Assembly: GCA_021404785.1 (NCBI GenBank)
Contig: QWHH01000012.1
Location: 1 to 64,000, forward strand
DNA from: Lysobacterales bacterium PRO7
Lineage (GTDB): Bacteria; Pseudomonadota; Gammaproteobacteria; Xanthomonadales; Rhodanobacteraceae
Reading direction: 5' to 3'
Length of the DNA: 64,000 bases
Shown here: piece by piece, positions 1-54,457 of the stretch
Layout of the letters: every line of letters starts with the position of its first letter
Numbering within the stretch: position 1 is the first letter of the stretch
Made by a program: the position numbers and the translations under genes
Notes under the pieces: model-generated
Database searches by the model: none
What the model saw: the letters and a program-made list of their open reading frames with translations, nothing else
Told to the model about the DNA's origin: nothing

Positions 1-152
1 CTCCGGCAAGAACGGCACCGGAAGATGTTGGGGAGGTGGCTCAAAATTGGATGCAAAACCCTATGAAACCTGGCTCAGTTCTGTGTGCAAATCAACAGAC
101 CGAAACGCAGGCGCTGTGGTAGTTTAGGCGATCCAATTCGCCGGACTACTGC

Positions 153-1619
153 ATGGATTCGCAACTGCGCCGCACCAAGATCATCGCCACGCTCGGCCCC
201 GCCACCGATGCGCCGGGCGTGCTCGCGCGCATTCTCGAAGAAGGCGTCGATGTGGTGCGCCTGAATCTGTCGCATGGCGCTGCCGACGATCACCGCAAGC
301 GCTGTGAAGCCGCCCGTGCCGAAGCCGCCAAGCTCGGCCGCGAGGTCGGCGTGCTGGCCGACCTGCAAGGCCCGAAGATCCGCATCACGAAATTCGCGTC
401 CGCGCCGGTAATGCTCGAGCCCGGCCAGCCCTTTGCGCTGGAATGCGACGCCAACGCCGCGCCCGGCGATGCGCGTCGCGTCGGCGTGGGTTACCTCGGC
501 CTGTACAACGACGTGAAAGAGGGTGACACCCTGTTGCTCGACGATGGCCTGATCGCGCTCGGGGTGGATCGCGTCGACGGTACTACGATTCACACCACGG
601 TGAAGGTTGGCGGCGCGCTATCCGACCGCAAGGGCATCAATCGCCTCGGCGGTGGTCTTTCGCTGGCCGCGCTCGCGGAGAAGGACAAGAACGACATCAA
701 GCTCGCGGCGCAGCTCGGCGCGGACTTCCTCGCCGTGTCGTTCGCCAAGTCCGCCGCCGACATGATCGAAAGCCGCAAGTTGCTGCGTGCTGCCGGCGGC
801 AGCGCGGCCCTGGTCGCCAAGATCGAGCGCGCCGAGGCGATTGCGGTGCTCGGCGAGATCATCGACGCCTCCGATGCGGTGATGGTCGCGCGCGGCGACC
901 TCGGCGTGGAGATCGGCGATGCCGAACTGCCCGGCATCCAGAAAAAAATCATTCGCGAGGCGCTGTCACGCAACAAGGCCGTGATCACCGCCACGCAAAT
1001 GATGCAATCGATGGTCGAGTCGCCGATCCCGACGCGCGCCGAAGTGCTGGATGTCGCCAATGCCGTGCTCGACGGCACCGACGCGGTGATGCTGTCGCAG
1101 GAAACCGCGGCCGGCAAGCATCCGGACAAGGCGGTCGCGGCGATGCGCCGCGTGTGCCTGGGAGCCGAACACCAGTTCGACACCACCGAGCGCTACAAGC
1201 CCGGCGTGCGCAAGTTCGAACGCACCGACCAGGCCGTGGCGATGGCAGCGATGTTTCTTTCCGCGCAGGTCGAGCCGCGCGCGATCGTGGCGCTGACCGA
1301 ATCCGGTGCCACCGCGCAGTGGCTGTCGCGTTTTCGCTCGCCAGTGCCGATTTACGCCTTGTCGCGGCGCCAGGCCGCGCTGCGGCGCATGTTGTTGCTG
1401 CGCGACGTGTTTCCGGTCGAGTTCGACCCGCATGGCGTGGATGCCGCGCACGCGGCAAAAGCCGCGATCCAGCATTTGTACAATCAATCGCGCCTGAGTG
1501 AAGGCGACCGCGTCATCCTCACCCACGGCGACCACACCGGCCAGCGTGGCGGCACGAACACGCTCAAGCTGTTGGGCGTCGGTGCGGGCGGCGTGGCGGA
1601 AGGGTTGGGGGATTTGTAG
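153..1619 (+). CDS. pyk: Pyruvate kinase
   Basis: Converts phosphoenolpyruvate and ADP to pyruvate and ATP, the last step of glycolysis, in the cytosol. The 488-residue protein has the full family layout. The N-terminus carries the RRTKIIATLGPAT start and the RLNLSHG motif, followed by ADLQGPKIRI. The active-site stretch contains KIERAEA, MVARGDLGVE and TATQMMQSM...PTRAE, and a C-terminal allosteric-type domain follows. Length is normal for a bacterial enzyme. The ATG at 153 is the first one ahead of the conserved N-terminus. It lies just upstream of a small secreted-protein gene and an aldolase gene, which suggests a glycolytic cluster. The 152 bases before it hold nothing I can identify. 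Confidence 0.97.
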   Translation: MDSQLRRTKIIATLGPATDAPGVLARILEEGVDVVRLNLSHGAADDHRKRCEAARAEAAKLGREVGVLADLQGPKIRITKFASAPVMLEPGQPFALECDANAAPGDARRVGVGYLGLYNDVKEGDTLLLDDGLIALGVDRVDGTTIHTTVKVGGALSDRKGINRLGGGLSLAALAEKDKNDIKLAAQLGADFLAVSFAKSAADMIESRKLLRAAGGSAALVAKIERAEAIAVLGEIIDASDAVMVARGDLGVEIGDAELPGIQKKIIREALSRNKAVITATQMMQSMVESPIPTRAEVLDVANAVLDGTDAVMLSQETAAGKHPDKAVAAMRRVCLGAEHQFDTTERYKPGVRKFERTDQAVAMAAMFLSAQVEPRAIVALTESGATAQWLSRFRSPVPIYALSRRQAALRRMLLLRDVFPVEFDPHGVDAAHAAKAAIQHLYNQSRLSEGDRVILTHGDHTGQRGGTNTLKLLGVGAGGVAEGLGDL

Positions 1620-47478: not shown

Positions 47479-48300
47479 TCAAAGCCGCTCGCAGACCGCC
47501 AGCGTCGCTTTCGCACGGTTCAATGTGTAGAAGTGGATTCCTGGCGCTCCGCCGGCGATGAGCTTGCGGCACAGGTCGGCGACCACGTCGGCGCCGAATT
47601 CGCGGATCGCTTCGACGTCGTCGCGATACGCTTCCAGGCGCTTGGCGATCCAGCGCGGGATTTCCGCGCCGCACAGGTCGGAGAACCGGCGCAGCTGCGC
47701 GTACTGTGAAATCGGCATGATGCCCGGAACGATGGGAATATCGATGCTGTGCTTGCGCGCCTCGTCCACGAAGCGGAAGTAGGCATCCGCATTGTAGAAA
47801 TATTGTGTGATCGCGCCGTTCGCGCCGGCCTTCACCTTGGCCGCGAAATTTTTCAGATCCGCGTGCGCATCGCCGGCCTGCGGGTGCATTTCCGGATAGC
47901 AGGCCACCTCGATGTGGAAGAAACCGTCGCATTCGCGGCGGATGAATTCCACTAATTCGCTGGCATAACGGAAGTCGCCATAGCTGGCCATGCCCGAAGG
48001 CAGGTCGCCGCGCAGCGCGACGATGCGCTTGCAGCCCATCGCCTTGTAGTCGTCGAGCAAGGCGCGGATTTCCGCGCGCGTGCCGCCCATGCACGAGACA
48101 TGCGGCGCGGCGTCGAGGCCGTGCGCGTCGCGCAGATGGCGCACGATCTGCGGCGTATAGGCGAGCGTAGATCCGCCCGCGCCGAACGTGACGCTGACGT
48201 AATCCGGATTCAGCGCCTTCAGTTTCGGCAGCGCCGCTTCGAGCGTGGCCTTCTGCTCATCGGTTTTCGGCGGAAAGAATTCGAGGCTGATCAGTGGCAT
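47479..48300 (-). CDS. metF: Methylenetetrahydrofolate reductase
   Basis: A 273-residue flavoprotein that reduces 5,10-methylene-THF to 5-methyl-THF, feeding methionine synthesis. Motifs: SLEFFPPKT at the start, DYVSVTFGAGGST, PHVSCMGGTRAEIRALLDDY, IVALRGDLPSG and GANGAITQYFYNADAYFRFVDEA (parts), with PIVPGIMPISQY near the end. It forms the (beta/alpha)8 barrel alone, as in bacteria. It functionally links to ahcY, 5 kb away, through the methyl cycle. Confidence 0.96.
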   Translation of the reverse strand: MPLISLEFFPPKTDEQKATLEAALPKLKALNPDYVSVTFGAGGSTLAYTPQIVRHLRDAHGLDAAPHVSCMGGTRAEIRALLDDYKAMGCKRIVALRGDLPSGMASYGDFRYASELVEFIRRECDGFFHIEVACYPEMHPQAGDAHADLKNFAAKVKAGANGAITQYFYNADAYFRFVDEARKHSIDIPIVPGIMPISQYAQLRRFSDLCGAEIPRWIAKRLEAYRDDVEAIREFGADVVADLCRKLIAGGAPGIHFYTLNRAKATLAVCERL

Positions 48301-49418: not shown

Positions 49419-49673
49419 ATGGCAATGGTCGAACTGGACATCAAGCAGTGGGGCAACAATCTCGGCGTGCGCTTGCCGGTGGCGATCGCGCGCGCGGCGC
49501 ATCTGCGCGCGGATCAGCGCGTGAGCATCGCCGTCGAGGATGGCCGCGTCGTCGTCACGCCGATGGACGACGCGCCCCTCACGCTTGAACAACGCCTTGC
49601 GCGGTTCGATCCGCAAAGCCACGGCGGCGAAGCCATGGCCGCCGATGAGCGCATCGGGGCCGAGCGCTGGTGA
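49419..49673 (+). CDS. mazE: MazE-type antitoxin (AbrB/SpoVT fold)
   Basis: An 84-residue antitoxin with the AbrB-type beta-hairpin DNA-binding segment LDIKQWGNNLGVRLPVAIARA, then a flexible tail (TPMDDAPLTLEQRLARF) expected to wrap around the toxin. AAGGAG lies 6 bases before the ATG at 49419. It overlaps the toxin gene by 4 bases, as in other mazEF operons. The pair is near the pirin gene and the accessory segment. Confidence 0.92.
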   Translation: MAMVELDIKQWGNNLGVRLPVAIARAAHLRADQRVSIAVEDGRVVVTPMDDAPLTLEQRLARFDPQSHGGEAMAADERIGAERW

Positions 49674-50071
49674 ACAAGCGCGTTGGAAAACGCATCATCA
49701 ATCCGGCGCGTGCATGGGTGCCGGATCGGCAGGACGTGATCTGGATCGACTGCAACCCGCAAGCCGGGCGGGAAATGCGCGACGTGCATCCGTTCCTCGT
49801 GCTGTCGCCCAAGGCATTCAACCAGCGCACTTCGCTTGTCGTCGGGCTACCCATGACGACTGCCGAGTACAACGCGAGCAATCCGTTCGCCGTTGCCGCT
49901 GGTGTTGCGAGTGGGCGCAAGTCGGGCGCGACGAGTTACGTGCTGTGCCATCAGCCCAAATCGTTCGATTGGCGATTGCGCGGCGGCAAGCCGCATCCCA
50001 TGCGCAGGCTGGATGACAAACCGTTCGCCGAGGTGCTGCTGGTGTTGAACCAGATTGTGCAGTTGGCGTAG
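49670..50071 (+). CDS. mazF: MazF-type toxin endoribonuclease
   Basis: A 133-residue PemK/MazF-fold protein that cleaves mRNA at short sequences when freed from MazE. Motifs: WVPDRQDVIWIDCNPQAGREM, then HPFLVLSPKAFNQRTSLVVGLPMT, and SYVLCHQPKSFDWR near the end. The start is a GTG that overlaps the mazE stop (GTGA), giving translational coupling. Length and layout fit MazF/ChpA proteins. The recognition sequence cannot be predicted. Confidence 0.92.
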   Translation: MNKRVGKRIINPARAWVPDRQDVIWIDCNPQAGREMRDVHPFLVLSPKAFNQRTSLVVGLPMTTAEYNASNPFAVAAGVASGRKSGATSYVLCHQPKSFDWRLRGGKPHPMRRLDDKPFAEVLLVLNQIVQLA

Positions 50072-50103: not shown

Positions 50104-50190
50104 GTAGGGCGGGGGAAATCGCGTAGCGGCGCATCCCGCCGTCGCCGCGCTGAGACTATGAAAGGCGGGATACGCTTCGCTCCTCCCGCC
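50104..50190. repeat. Pair of REP-like palindromes
   Basis: Two hairpins built on GGCGGG/CCCGCC (50108-50140 and 50164-50190), each starting near GTAGGGCGGG or AAAGGCGGG. They lie between mazF and the ParA-like gene, at the left edge of the lower-GC segment. Such elements are common intergenic repeats and may mark a rearrangement boundary. Confidence 0.65.
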
Positions 50191-50241
50191 TTACGCGGGC
50201 TATGTTATTTTCCAGTGGCCTGTCTGCAGGGGAGGGGAGAC

Positions 50242-51123
50242 TTGAAAACTATCGCAACGATCAACTTCAAGGGCGGCGTTGGGAAAACCACAGCCACTTG
50301 GGCTCTGGGGAACGTCGCGGCTCGCGACACTGGAATCCGATCGCTGATCTTCGATCTGGATGCCCAGATGTCGCTCACGCAAGCGATTGCGCTCAACGAG
50401 GACGGCAATCCGTTCAAGGACTTTACCAATTGGTATGAGCGATCAATCAGCAAGAAAAAGACAATATTTGATGCGCTTGATGAGTTCACGAAGCCAACGA
50501 CGTTCAATTTCGGCATTAATCATGATTTCATCTACAAAATCTCGGAGCGCTATCACTTTATTCCATCGGTCGAAGATCTCTATTGGACCGAACTTGAGCT
50601 ATTTGATCGAGAGAAGGTTAAGTTCTTCATTCAACGCTTACTGGAGAAGGTTCAGAATTCATCGAATGTCCCCAAATACGACTACGCGCTATTCGATTGC
50701 CCGCCTTCTTTTAGCCTTTTGAGCTATTCGGTCTTGTCTACCTGTGACCTTGTGCTTATCCCCATCAATCCTGATTTCTTCGCTGCTAAGGGCCTATCGC
50801 TGCTGTTGAACAGTCTTCGCATGCGCATAGAACCATTCCCTGTTCCGAAGATCGGTGTCTTCATGAATCGTGCGAAGAAGCCAGGTGGGAGTTCCGTCAA
50901 ACGATACAGCAATGAGACACAGCGCTATCTCGATGATGCCGCGGACGTGCTAAAACACGTCGCTGCCGACCGCGGCCTGAATGTCCGGCTTTTTGATCAG
51001 GCCATCTTTGAGAAGGTCGGCATGAAGCGAGCGATTCAAGAGGGATTGCCCACTGACTTTGCGGCACAATACGCAGCTCTTTGGAAACAGGTTCAAGGCT
51101 TCTTAAATGAGAAGACCAAATGA
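50242..51123 (+). CDS. ParA/MinD-family ATPase
   Basis: A 293-residue P-loop ATPase. It has the deviant Walker A FKGGVGKTT at residues 9-17, the ParA LIFDLDAQMSLTQ motif, and YDYALFDCPPSFSLL as Walker B. C-terminal QAIFEKVGMKRAIQEGLP follows. ParA-type proteins move plasmids, chromosomes or protein cargos by cycling on DNA. The start is a TTG preceded by GGAGG with 6-base spacing; the frame is open upstream through the REP-like repeats. Base composition is clearly lower in GC than the neighbourhood, suggesting transfer. It overlaps a small gene that may encode its partner. No ParB or centromere-like array seen. Confidence 0.88.
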   Translation: MKTIATINFKGGVGKTTATWALGNVAARDTGIRSLIFDLDAQMSLTQAIALNEDGNPFKDFTNWYERSISKKKTIFDALDEFTKPTTFNFGINHDFIYKISERYHFIPSVEDLYWTELELFDREKVKFFIQRLLEKVQNSSNVPKYDYALFDCPPSFSLLSYSVLSTCDLVLIPINPDFFAAKGLSLLLNSLRMRIEPFPVPKIGVFMNRAKKPGGSSVKRYSNETQRYLDDAADVLKHVAADRGLNVRLFDQAIFEKVGMKRAIQEGLPTDFAAQYAALWKQVQGFLNEKTK

Positions 51124-51521
51124 CTAACGACAACCTCCGACTGGAAATTTCGAAGCTTCATGAAAAGCTGGATCGCATACTTGTTTTGCTCGATGCAAGA
51201 ACTGCATCTGCGCAGAAGAAAGCAGCTGATCGCAAGGCAAAGCAACAAAAACCTAAACCTTTGACTGAGGCTGAGATTAGGTTACAACAGGAGCATTTCC
51301 AGGAACTTTTCTCTCGCTGGATGAATGGCTCCGAGGTCGAGGTTCAGAATGAACTTGAGCGGGAAGATGCAGATGCGCTCAGACGGTTTGCCGATGCGAA
51401 CAACTTGAACATCACTACTAAGACACCCAAGACCAAGGCTCTACAACTGATCGCAGCGAGATTCCGAGAAAAACGGCAACTCATGCAGGGGCTCCCGTCG
51501 CGACGAGACGTTGACCTTTAG
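51120..51521 (+). CDS. Small coiled-coil protein coupled to ParA-like ATPase
   Basis: A 133-residue protein, overlapping the ParA-like gene by 4 bases (ATGA), so production is linked. The first 50 residues form a coiled coil (LRLEISKLHEKLDRILVLLD) followed by a lysine-rich stretch (KKAADRKAKQQKPKP). The C-terminal half is helical and basic (FADANNLNITTKTPKTKALQ, AARFREKRQ) and may bind nucleic acid or the ATPase. No known domain recognised. It may be the adaptor of an uncharacterised ParA-type system. Confidence 0.65.
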   Translation: MTNDNLRLEISKLHEKLDRILVLLDARTASAQKKAADRKAKQQKPKPLTEAEIRLQQEHFQELFSRWMNGSEVEVQNELEREDADALRRFADANNLNITTKTPKTKALQLIAARFREKRQLMQGLPSRRDVDL

Positions 51522-51546: not shown

Positions 51547-51596
51547 GGCGCCAGTCTTGTTTTCAGCAATGAACAGTTCGAAGGTCAGTAGCGATA
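51547..51596. repeat. Diverged copy 1 of the ahcY 3' end and terminator arm
   Basis: Fifty bases, ungapped, with 39 matches to the original at 52995-53044. The minus strand retains TATCGCTACTGA, which in ahcY encodes the last Tyr-Arg-Tyr and the stop codon. It sits just downstream of the zinc-ribbon gene on the minus strand. Confidence 0.8.
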
Positions 51597-51641
51597 ACGT
51601 CTCCTTATGTATGGCTCTTTCAGCACGTTACCCCACGAGAC

Positions 51642-52175
51642 TCAGTCCCAGCATCCCGCGCTTTTAAAATGCAGGGTTCTCTGTTCGCATTTCGGGCATG
51701 GATAGGCACAGTCATAGAGGGTGTAATACTCGCCCGCTCGAACTTTCTCCCATGTGGCTTCATAGTTGGCAACAAGCTCAGCCCGTAGCCCGTTCAGATC
51801 AAGTTCAAGATCGGACAAGATCGCTTCGAATTGAGCGCGACTGTCGTCAGTATCGCCCCTCTCCATCTGGATGATGTCATCAGCAAAGGCTTCAGCTGAC
51901 GGCGCACGCAGGATGCTTGAGTTGGGGTGCTCGTGCCACTCATATACCGTATGGTGCAACGGTTGGCCCAAAAACATCGACGGGTCGCTGTAAGGTGTCA
52001 CTGCGGCCCCCTGGCATTGATTGCAACGAGGTTCCGGATCCATGGCGTTCAACACCACGAGTTCGGAGCATGCCTCGCACAAGTAAGGGAAGGCATTGCG
52101 CTCTGTGAAATCATCGAAGCCACCGCCAAGAGCCATACTGGTCTTGTAGCCACATTTGCACGATGCACTGACCAT
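51642..52175 (-). CDS. Zinc-ribbon protein of unknown function
   Basis: A 177-residue protein with three cysteine pairs: SCKCGYKT near the N-terminus, YLCEACSELV and RCNQCQG, and a fourth late set, YPCPKCEQRTL with a final Cys. Together they suggest two zinc ribbons, one near the start and one at the end. The middle (about 95-150) is helical. Function unknown. No signal peptide. The ATG at 52175 is preferred; a GTG three codons upstream is possible. Composition is lower in GC than the flanking core genes. It lies between two diverged copies of the ahcY end. Confidence 0.65.
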   Translation of the reverse strand: MVSASCKCGYKTSMALGGGFDDFTERNAFPYLCEACSELVVLNAMDPEPRCNQCQGAAVTPYSDPSMFLGQPLHHTVYEWHEHPNSSILRAPSAEAFADDIIQMERGDTDDSRAQFEAILSDLELDLNGLRAELVANYEATWEKVRAGEYYTLYDCAYPCPKCEQRTLHFKSAGCWD

Positions 52176-52308
52176 GGTACCCACACCACACCCCCGATTG
52201 CCTGGAGTTTGAAATTCCGCAGTTTCTCATCAACCGTGATCTCACCGAGGGCAGTATCTTCCGGAGTCTGTGTCAGAGTCCACTATCGACCGAGTCGAAA
52301 TAAAAACG

Positions 52309-52358
52309 AGCGCCCTTTTCGTTTCCAGCGATGACCAGCCCGACGATCAGTCGCGAAC
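52309..52358. repeat. Diverged copy 2 of the ahcY 3' end and terminator arm
   Basis: Fifty bases, ungapped, with 42 matches to the original at 52995-53044, including 16 identical bases in TTTCCAGCGATGACCA. It ends one base before the brnA stop codon (minus strand), so this copy forms the 3' flank of brnTA. Confidence 0.85.
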
Positions 52359-52664
52359 TTATTGCTTCACCGAAGCCGACAACCGCGCGACCATGCGCGT
52401 TTGCCAGCCGGGGCCGGTAGCTTTCCAGCGTTCGATAACCGACACCGGGACACGCAGGGAGATGGCGGTTTTCGCTTCGCCGACGACAGGGCGGCCGCGC
52501 TTGCGCGCGATCAGCTCGCCGATCTTGCGGTCCCATTTGACGGCGCGCGGGTCTTTGCGCGCTTCACGGCGCACGCGTTCCCAATCGGTGCGATCTTCGC
52601 CGCGCGCGCGGGCGGCGCGCATCTGTTCACTGGTCATCACGGTAATCTTTTTCGAGCCACGCAT
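52359..52664 (-). CDS. brnA: BrnA-family antitoxin
   Basis: A 101-residue antitoxin. It has a charged N-terminal half (TSEQMRAARARGEDRTDWERVR) and a C-terminal ribbon-helix-helix segment (TAISLRVPVSVIERWKATGPGWQTRM), as in BrnA proteins. It neutralises BrnT and represses the operon. The ATG at 52664 has GGGAG 7 bases upstream and overlaps the brnT end by 38 bases. Downstream ATGs would shorten it to about 92 or 87 residues. Confidence 0.9.
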   Translation of the reverse strand: MRGSKKITVMTSEQMRAARARGEDRTDWERVRREARKDPRAVKWDRKIGELIARKRGRPVVGEAKTAISLRVPVSVIERWKATGPGWQTRMVARLSASVKQ

Positions 52665-52923
52665 AGTAGTTCTCCCGTTCTTTCCGCTTCGCTTGGCGGA
52701 AACTCACGATGCGGCAGCGTTCTTCTCCGGAAACAAACGCAACCGTCAGCACTGTCAACACATCGAACACATAGGCGAATGCTTGCTTCCGGGCTTCGCC
52801 TTTGCGTTCGCTGTCCACGATCAGGACGTAATCGCTTTCGAGCACCAGGTCGGCGTCGGCGAAATCCAGCCCGTGCTTGTGCAGGTTCGCGGCACGCTTG
52901 GCTTCGTCCCATTCGTAGATCAT
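52627..52923 (-). CDS. brnT: BrnT-family toxin
   Basis: A 98-residue toxin of the BrnT family, RelE-like fold ribonuclease. Motifs: IYEWDEAKRAANLHKHGLDFADA near the start, then CRIVSFRQAKRKERENY with the conserved basic residues. The first of two adjacent ATGs (52926) is an alternative start. It precedes brnA on the minus strand, the usual toxin-first order. A perfect 16-base palindrome lies just upstream. Confidence 0.92.
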   Translation of the reverse strand: MIYEWDEAKRAANLHKHGLDFADADLVLESDYVLIVDSERKGEARKQAFAYVFDVLTVLTVAFVSGEERCRIVSFRQAKRKERENYYAWLEKDYRDDQ

Positions 52924-52933
52924 CATGAATAAT

Positions 52934-52949
52934 GTATATACGTATATAC
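52934..52949 (-). promoter_or_regulatory. Perfect 16-bp palindrome, likely brnTA operator
   Basis: GTATATACGTATATAC is its own reverse complement and lies 8 to 11 bases before the brnT start, depending on which ATG is used. It is AT-rich in a GC-rich context. BrnA ribbon-helix-helix antitoxins repress their own operon through palindromes in this position. Confidence 0.7.
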
Positions 52950-52981
52950 GAAATGTCAAGTTCTGCGGGACTCAAAGCAAA

Positions 52982-53003
52982 ACGGGCGCCTCTCGGCGCC
53001 CGT
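52982..53003 (-). terminator. Intrinsic terminator of ahcY
   Basis: Stem ACGGGCGCC-TCTC-GGCGCCCGT, with TTTT on the minus-strand side, 30 bases beyond the ahcY stop. Its right arm is the part shared with the diverged copies at 51547 and 52309, which lack a complete partner arm. Confidence 0.85.
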
Positions 53004-53032
53004 TTCGTTTCCAGCGATGACCAATCCGCCGA

Positions 53033-53044
<12 letters not shown>
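52995..53044. repeat. Parent copy of the ahcY 3'-end repeat
   Basis: Overlaps the right arm of the terminator and the last codons of ahcY (Tyr-Arg-Tyr-stop, minus strand). Two diverged copies lie at 52309 and 51547, spaced 686 and 762 bases apart. Confidence 0.85.

Positions 53045-54457
<1,413 letters not shown>

What the first reader, a model, noticed from the sequence alone, without database searches (positions are those of the whole stretch)
51547..53044. Three ahcY 3'-end repeats bracket two accessory modules
The 50 bases covering the ahcY terminator arm and the codons for its last Tyr-Arg-Tyr plus stop (52995-53044) recur without gaps at 52309-52358 (42 of 50 match) and 51547-51596 (39 of 50 match). 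Spacings are 686 and 762 bases. Between copies 2 and 3 lies only brnTA; between copies 1 and 2 lies only the zinc-ribbon gene. All accessory genes in these intervals point the same way as ahcY, and each repeat lies just past their 3' end. This looks like successive cassette-style gains at the ahcY 3' end, with older copies more diverged. No integrase gene is in the window. It could be an uncharacterised insertion mechanism that rebuilds the terminator each time.
Basis: partly seen in the sequence, partly recalled or inferred. Interest (0 to 1): 0.8.

Follow-up and report, generated by a model that had tools for sequence, protein, structure and literature searches.

The report
ahcY gene-tail copies between gained modules
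Short copies of the tail end of a housekeeping gene mark places where small foreign gene blocks, mostly toxin-antitoxin genes, were added behind it, most likely by ordinary DNA recombination rather than by a new insertion enzyme.

Summary
The repeats are real: 42/50 and 39/50 matches, against at most 30/50 in 300 simulated windows, and nowhere else in the genome. They are copies of the end of ahcY (last codons, stop, terminator region). The ahcY-metF spacer is a gene-gain hotspot: 65 bp to 15 kb in 104 genomes, 24 under 500 bp. Stop-spanning tail copies occur in 5 of 136 genomes by one scan, plus G216; they are about 50 to 588 bp long with different left ends. G216 shares brnTA and copy 2 but lacks the zinc-ribbon module; G031 is the empty site for G038. 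No tyrosine-recombinase domain lies near ahcY in 7 of 7 genomes. Near and far copies are mosaics of different alleles. The pattern recurs elsewhere: brnTA behind a pilin gene (G015) and mazEF behind a PEP-synthase-like gene, each followed by that gene's tail. Best reading: modules captured by homologous plus short-homology recombination, duplicating a gene end. Copies 2 and 1 no longer fold as terminators, so 'rebuilding the terminator' is not supported.

The parts
53033..54457 (-). ahcY, S-adenosylhomocysteine hydrolase; conserved anchor gene
   Evidence: Pfam PF05221/PF00670
52995..53044 (-). copy 3: native ahcY 3' end (Tyr-Arg-Tyr-stop, 3' UTR, left arm of the terminator; the hairpin continues to about 52976)
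   Evidence: -26.2 kcal/mol, z -5.67
52627..52959 (-). brnT toxin gene (likely start near 52926)
   Evidence: PF04365 E 2.9e-19
52359..52664 (-). brnA antitoxin gene; its stop abuts copy 2
   Evidence: PF14384 E 5.6e-11
52309..52358 (-). copy 2 of the ahcY 3' end; hairpin spoiled by a 10-bp deletion relative to the orthologous, still folding copy in G216 (L036)
51642..52184 (-). 180-aa gene of unknown family with CxxC pairs (weak zinc-ribbon resemblance); one distant match (34%, G035) in the other 233 family genomes
51547..51596 (-). copy 1 of the ahcY 3' end, most diverged, keeps TATCGCTACTGA; no terminator fold
51120..51521 (+). 133-aa orf overlapping the ParA-like gene, convergent to ahcY
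   Evidence: no Pfam family
50158..51123 (+). ParA/CbiA-like ATPase gene
   Evidence: PF13614 E 3.8e-32
49670..50071 (+). mazF-like toxin gene; part of a 713-bp unit matched in 6 of 234 family genomes, each time behind ahcY
   Evidence: PF02452
49362..49673 (+). mazE-like antitoxin gene
   Evidence: PF04014
48410..49459 (-). pirin-like gene (name recalled from the sequence; start over-called into the mazE promoter)
   Evidence: ORF only
47479..48300 (-). metF-like gene (name recalled), conserved far border; on the same strand behind ahcY in 104 of 136 family genomes

Best explanation
The spacer between ahcY and metF is a variable locus that collects small gene modules without a recombinase of its own. 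Incoming or sister DNA pairs with the strongly conserved ahcY 3' end (homologous step), while the other end of the new stretch is joined at or inside a second ahcY 3' end by very short homology. Such an event puts cargo behind the ahcY terminator and leaves a second, partial ahcY tail (from about 10 to 533 bp of coding end, plus stop and terminator) on the cargo's far side. The tails then decay. The same kind of scar at a pilin gene and a PEP-synthase-like gene, and one with a gene start, suggests a general way in which toxin-antitoxin modules are captured, with ahcY a favoured place rather than a special site. Shown: the repeats, the variable spacer, near-empty sites, different cargo at one place, mosaic near and far copies, one short-homology junction, no tyrosine recombinase nearby, similar scars elsewhere. 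Inferred: RecA and natural transformation as the route, the order of the window's own events, and one mechanism for the window's short old copies and the long copies of relatives.
For: metF was found behind ahcY within the fetched flank in 112 of 136 genomes, on the same strand in 104; those intervals run from 65 bp to 15.3 kb, 24 under 500 bp and 27 at 9 kb or more. Stop-spanning copies: G000 (two), G034 (two), G038, G104, G210 of 136 genomes, plus G216. Left ends: -533, about -182 twice, -36 twice, -9, -11. Empty site: the two genes behind G038's far copy stand directly behind ahcY in G031. Window +3..723 equals G216 +150..870 at 88.6%; the zinc-ribbon module is absent there. G038 junction: the mazE flank, judged from its relatives, resembles ahcY -533 over about 17 bases, by eye. 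dN/dS near versus far is 0.18 (G038, last 180 bases 0.36), 0.15 (G034), 0.17 (G104, on 4 differences). G104's copies differ at 4 of 183 coding bases yet have different UTRs; G038's UTRs are identical over 54 bases while the coding is 93%. G114 has G104's UTR and Rhs-like cargo without a tail copy. No PF00589 near ahcY in 7 of 7 genomes: absent from the ahcY contig in 5, at least 148 kb away in G104 and G209. Elsewhere: in G015 brnTA lies between a ComP-like pilin gene (PF16732) and an 83-bp copy of that gene's end, stop included; in L324 mazEF is followed by a decayed, stop-spanning tail of a PEP-synthase-like gene. Bracketing direct repeats within 1.5 kb: 5 of 67 mazEF intervals against 3 of 230 control intervals in the same loci, Fisher p 0.016. 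ComEC-type domain in 8 of 8 genomes.
Against: Left ends fall in pairs (-182, -36, about -10), which chance joining does not predict. A short homology is visible at one junction only; the pre-insertion sequences of the others were not found. No donor molecule or within-species polymorphism was seen. G104 and G114 differ about as much in ahcY (94.1% over 660 bp) as in UTR plus cargo (91.0%), so that cargo may be vertical. The window's copies 1 and 2 are each most like the window's own ahcY end among the ends compared, which fits self-duplication as well. The excess over other genes is modest: 4 of 136 ahcY against 5 of 1176 other genes at equal settings, Fisher p 0.009. brnTA in G220 and G009 has no bracketing repeat. 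ComEC-type domains also ring in 10 of 14 control genomes, so they are weak support.
Confidence: 0.6

Rival explanations
1. Self-duplication with templated insertion: an end or stalled fork at the ahcY terminator copies a piece from elsewhere, then switches back to an upstream point of ahcY and re-copies its 3' end; no donor ahcY is involved.
For: The near/far match ends at or just past the terminator T-run in the intact copies; G038's UTRs are identical over 54 bases and G104's copies differ at 4 of 183 coding bases; in G015 the tail copy is almost identical to its source; the window's copies are closest to the window's own ahcY end.
Against: dN/dS of 0.15-0.18 in G034 and G038 and the mismatched UTRs in G034 and G104 point to two functional alleles rather than a fresh copy drifting; the mazEF unit recurs at this locus in three genera.
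Confidence: 0.2
2. Integrated elements or satellites using a site-specific recombinase supplied in trans or since lost; the tails are attL/attR-like sites.
For: Direct repeats of a gene's 3' end border the modules; left ends coincide in pairs between genera (G034 and G104 at about -182).
Against: Four classes of left end; no PF00589 near ahcY in 7 of 7 genomes; tblastn of 26 proteins from integrase loci against 120 flanks gave only three matches of 17-27 query residues, 5 kb or more behind ahcY; no phage record matches the ahcY tail at E<=0.1 (50,697 records); scars at other genes, once with a gene start. Serine recombinases and transposases were not searched for systematically.
Confidence: 0.12
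3. Integron-like cassettes: each module is a gene plus a folded 3' site (the tail copy), moved by an integron integrase.
For: In the window each module is followed, in the same orientation, by one repeat whose native form folds.
Against: Copies carry up to 533 bp of ahcY coding sequence in relatives; neither GTTRRRY nor RYYYAAC (motifs recalled) occurs in the 50-mer on either strand; no integrase domain on the contig.
Confidence: 0.02
4. Dispersed REP-type or terminator repeats that happen to lie near ahcY.
For: The terminator part alone (about 25-31 bases of the query) matches other places in several relatives.
Against: The three matches in the own genome are all at ahcY; the downstream copies counted here include the stop codon and ahcY coding bases.
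Confidence: 0.02

Closest known systems
[quoted passage not shown] 2017, PMC5635113; passages read)
   Same: Accessory genes gather between two conserved genes, no recombinase is found, and the content turns over.
   Different: That work defines hotspots from many genomes of one species; here one genome per species was available, and partial copies of the core gene are seen directly.
Homology-facilitated illegitimate recombination (PMC3240628, listing and start of abstract only; invoked for Vibrio T6SS immunity arrays in PMC5361080, passages read)
   Same: One conserved anchor, one short-homology joint, foreign cargo, older modules pushed downstream in a row.
   Different: There the anchor is the T6SS effector region; here it is the end of a housekeeping gene, and a partial copy of the anchor is left behind.
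Transformation-made merodiploids in Streptococcus pneumoniae (PMC3784515, passages read)
   Same: Incoming DNA paired at two places makes duplications; small ones without flanking repeats are also reported.
   Different: Those duplications are from about 3 kb to hundreds of kilobases and were selected in the laboratory.
Islands in gene 3' ends that carry a replacement gene end (e14/phage 21 in icd; recalled, not looked up)
   Same: A gene tail is duplicated around the insert and the gene stays intact.
   Different: No integrase and no constant crossover point were found here.

Membership tests
Integrase-mediated island at a gene 3' end | direct repeats of the target gene end border the insert | tested here: met
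Integrase-mediated island at a gene 3' end | recombinase gene in the element | tested here: not met
   PF00589 not near ahcY in 7 of 7 genomes; 26 proteins from integrase loci gave three short matches in 120 flanks. Serine recombinases not tested.
Integrase-mediated island at a gene 3' end | one constant crossover site | tested here: not met
   left ends -533, about -182, -36, about -10; but they fall in pairs
Integron gene cassettes | integron integrase and attC sites with conserved cores | tested here: not met
   no integrase domain on the contig; core motifs absent from the 50-mer; copies with long ahcY coding parts
Core-gene-flanked hotspot without mobile elements | variable accessory content between fixed core genes, with near-empty sites | tested here: met
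Core-gene-flanked hotspot without mobile elements | raised homologous recombination in the flanking core gene | tested here: inconclusive
   mosaic near/far copies and dN/dS; no within-species data
Homology-facilitated illegitimate recombination | one homologous joint and one joint at short or no homology | tested here: inconclusive
   short homology seen in G038 only; the homologous joint inside ahcY is inferred
Homology-facilitated illegitimate recombination | RecA dependence and uptake of foreign DNA | not testable with these tools
   needs an experiment; ComEC-type domain in 8 of 8 genomes only
REP/dispersed repeat | many copies at unrelated positions | tested here: not met
   three matches in the genome, all at ahcY

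The most novel reading that the evidence does not exclude
Toxin-antitoxin and similar small modules move between chromosomes in a cassette-like way without an integrase, docking at the end of a resident gene (ahcY, a PEP-synthase-like gene, a ComP-like pilin) and leaving a partial copy of that gene on their far side; at ahcY the docking prefers a few points (about -182, -36 and -10), so some specific machinery may take part. (Raised from 0.12 to 0.18 after searches showed the scar at other genes.)
Probability: 0.18. Interest if true: 0.7.

Novelty: new member of a known kind. Interest (0 to 1): 0.45.

Why it matters
Many gene-gain hotspots lack any recombinase, and how genes, toxin-antitoxin modules among them, enter them is inferred mostly from statistics. 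This locus keeps a readable record: partial copies of a core gene, of graded age, mark single gains, so the joints can be dated, compared across genera and re-made in the laboratory. That similar scars flank toxin-antitoxin genes at unrelated genes makes a general, testable route of capture worth pursuing.

Tried and rejected
Rejected: REP-type repeats; tyrosine-integrase island; phage with an ahcY tail (no match). The viral-contig scan kept 80 of 116 contigs encoding an ahcY relative; they were not examined further and nothing is drawn from them. The plasmid search gave 39 records; the 20 listed were at or near ahcY or at brnT. An order-wide search for extra ahcY C-terminal fragments (399 genomes, 386 with a match) added only G301 with two matches; not followed up. 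Not counted as tail copies: terminator-only matches (G209, G210 second copy, G030) and a 31-base coding match in G180. brnTA relatives: G015 has the pilin tail copy, G220 and G009 have no bracketing repeat, and the G035 region held no brnT. A plasmid search with the G015 region found nothing. The 149-bp insert behind the ahcY stop of G216 has no relative in the loci held. A first idea that G104's Rhs-like cargo was a recent import was weakened by G114. The mazF family as a whole is not tied to ahcY: of 80 loci kept of 537, 7 have ahcY in the flank, 4 with this family's arrangement and 3 from two Zhongshania genomes with mazF before ahcY. dS of mazEF against metF is mixed: G195-G199 differ more in mazF (0.91) than in metF (0.54), which argues against strict vertical descent; WIN-G195 are alike (0.72, 0.76). 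In one search, 11 of 80 mazF loci had repeats within 4 kb; some are paralogous genes or repeats of unknown kind (L293, L305, L342, L350), L330 is a 281-bp copy of a ROK gene's start, L353 a terminator copy, and L309, L321 and L358 were not resolved. Literature: (six searches of the held library) listed no paper on an ahcY insertion hotspot; absence is claimed for those listings only.

Full report
OBSERVATION. The 50-base end of ahcY (52995-53044) matches 52309-52358 at 42/50 and 51547-51596 at 39/50; no other place in the 64 kb reaches 30/50, and 300 first-order Markov windows gave a best score of 30. The repeat finder gives the same copies with spacings 762 and 686. In the whole genome (2.8 Mb, 19 contigs) a 90-base query finds only these three. 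Between copies 3 and 2 lies brnTA (PF04365, PF14384); between copies 2 and 1 lies a 180-aa gene of no known family with a weak zinc-ribbon resemblance. Past copy 1 come a 133-aa orf, a ParA-like gene, mazEF, a pirin-like gene and metF. The native ahcY copy folds as a strong terminator (-26.2 kcal/mol, z -5.67); copies 2 and 1 do not (z +0.67, +0.55).

THE LOCUS IN RELATIVES. ahcY 3' flanks of 136 genomes passed the filters, of 234 family genomes searched; some flanks are cut by contig ends. metF was found behind ahcY in 112, on the same strand in 104. The interval is 65 bp to 15.3 kb, median about 2 kb; 24 of 104 are under 500 bp and 27 are 9 kb or more. So ahcY, terminator, metF is a common bare state and the space between is a place of repeated gene gain. 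In the window's own genus G220 and G224 have 445 and 749 bp there.

TAIL COPIES AT ahcY. A downstream copy of the ahcY end that spans the stop codon was found in G000 (two), G034 (two), G038, G104 and G210. In G216 the scan missed it because the native end is split by a 149-bp insert just behind the stop; the copy is seen. Positions relative to the end of the stop codon: G038 -533..+54 (588 bp, 93%); G034 -181..+54 (88%) and -36..+52 (76%); G104 -183..+55 (90%); G210 -36..+60 (80%), 11.9 kb away; window -9..+37 and -11..+38. A search with the last 61 residues found extra C-terminal fragments only in G034, G038 and G104 among 222 family genomes with a match; G049 has ahcY twice. At equal settings 4 of 136 ahcY genes and 5 of 1176 other genes in the same flanks have such a downstream tail copy (Fisher p 0.009). 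The excess is modest, and three of the five control genes look like tandem paralogues (my reading).

ORDER OF EVENTS IN THE WINDOW. The nearest relative, G216 (ahcY 95% identical in protein), matches the window's +3..+723 with its own +150..+870 at 88.6%: UTR, terminator, brnTA and copy 2. Copy 2 therefore predates the split. In G216 it still folds as a terminator (-29.7 kcal/mol, z -6.50); the window has lost ten bases of the hairpin. Behind copy 2 the two differ: the window has the unknown gene and copy 1, G216 a membrane-protein-like gene. Both then reach mazEF or its remains, and the chromosome is collinear again from +4673 (window) and +4123 (G216). Whether the unknown gene was gained in the window or lost in G216 is open.

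SAME PLACE, DIFFERENT CARGO. The mazEF unit is matched in 6 of 234 family genomes (E<=1e-10), in two of them only as remains, and in all six it lies behind ahcY. In G195 and G199 the mazF stop abuts the ahcY terminator; in the window, G038, G216 and contig L280 inserts sit between terminator and mazF. G031 shows the state before insertion for G038: the two genes that follow the far copy in G038 stand behind ahcY in G031 at +107 and +2102. G114 has the same UTR and Rhs-like gene behind ahcY as G104 but no tail copy.

THE SAME SCAR ELSEWHERE. While checking this report I found that brnTA in G015, far from ahcY, lies between a ComP-like minor pilin gene (PF16732) and an 83-bp copy (96%) of that gene's last codons and stop. 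In an Azonexaceae MAG (L324) mazEF is followed by a decayed tail, stop included, of the PEP-synthase-like gene before it; in Dechloromonas sp. H13 (L353) mazEF lies behind the same kind of gene and only its terminator stretch is repeated. In a Propionivibrio MAG (L330) a 281-bp copy of the start of a ROK gene brackets mazEF. Within 1.5 kb, 5 of 67 mazEF intervals with enough flank (of 80 loci, themselves the best 80 of 537) have bracketing direct repeats, against 3 of 230 control intervals in the same loci (Fisher p 0.016). One of the 5 is G038 itself, and L309 and L358 were not resolved. So the pattern is neither confined to ahcY nor always a tail.

MECHANISM. A tyrosine integrase is not supported: none of 7 tested genomes has a PF00589 domain near ahcY; proteins from 26 of 30 integrase loci gave only three matches of 17-27 query residues in 120 flanks, 5 kb or more behind ahcY; left ends differ between cases; no phage record matches the ahcY tail. 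Recombination between alleles is supported: in G038 the far copy begins where the mazE flank resembles ahcY over about 17 bases (read by eye, the flank judged from relatives); dN/dS between near and far copies is 0.18 in G038 (0.36 in the last 180 bases), 0.15 in G034 and 0.17 in G104 on 4 differences, low for a copy decaying in place; G104's copies differ at only 4 of 183 coding bases while their UTRs differ, and G038's UTRs are identical over 54 bases while the coding is 93% identical. These mosaics fit homologous pairing at the gene end with a short-homology joint on the other side. All 8 genomes tested have a ComEC-type domain, as do 10 of 14 controls, so this shows only that uptake is possible.

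WHAT DOES NOT FIT. The left ends fall in pairs (about -182 in G034 and G104, two genera; -36 in G034 and G210; -9 and -11 in the window). If this holds in more genomes, some points of ahcY are preferred and a more specific mechanism is back on the table. The window's copies are each closest to the window's own ahcY end among the ends compared, so for the window self-duplication cannot be told from import.

COMPARISON WITH WHAT IS KNOWN. Oliveira et al. [quoted passage not shown] this locus fits that kind. The sequential T6SS immunity arrays of Vibrio (PMC5361080, passages read) were explained by an anchor plus an illegitimate joint. Duplications triggered by transformation are documented in pneumococcus (PMC3784515, passages read). 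No account of an ahcY-metF hotspot appeared in the listings of six searches.

VERDICT. Observation confirmed; stepwise gains supported; a new terminator-rebuilding insertion mechanism not supported, though not excluded. A new example of a known kind.

Noticed in passing
window 50158-51521: An orphan ParA-like ATPase gene overlapping a 133-aa gene lies between copy 1 and mazEF; no relative in the other ahcY flanks held (140 sets).
   Followed up: partly
L036, just behind the ahcY stop (149 bp): G216 has a 149-bp insert between the ahcY stop and its terminator with no relative in the loci held.
   Followed up: partly
L066, first 600 bp behind ahcY: G106 carries about three tandem ~150-bp repeats containing GTCGTTCCTGCGAACGCAGGAACCC directly behind the ahcY terminator.
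   Followed up: no
L280: A contig filed as a Bacteroidetes MAG carries an ahcY end (90% protein identity) and mazF (94%) very like the window's; probably a binning error.
   Followed up: partly
L034, L051, L035, window: Left ends of the ahcY tail copies fall in pairs (about -182, -36, -10) in separate cases; unexplained.
   Followed up: partly
L330:1325-1605 and 2506-2786: mazEF in a Propionivibrio MAG is bracketed by a 281-bp copy (94%) of the start and promoter region of a ROK-family gene.
   Followed up: partly
L302, L320, L296: Two Zhongshania genomes carry mazF about 3 kb before an ahcY-metF pair; a distant ahcY link of the same toxin family.
   Followed up: no
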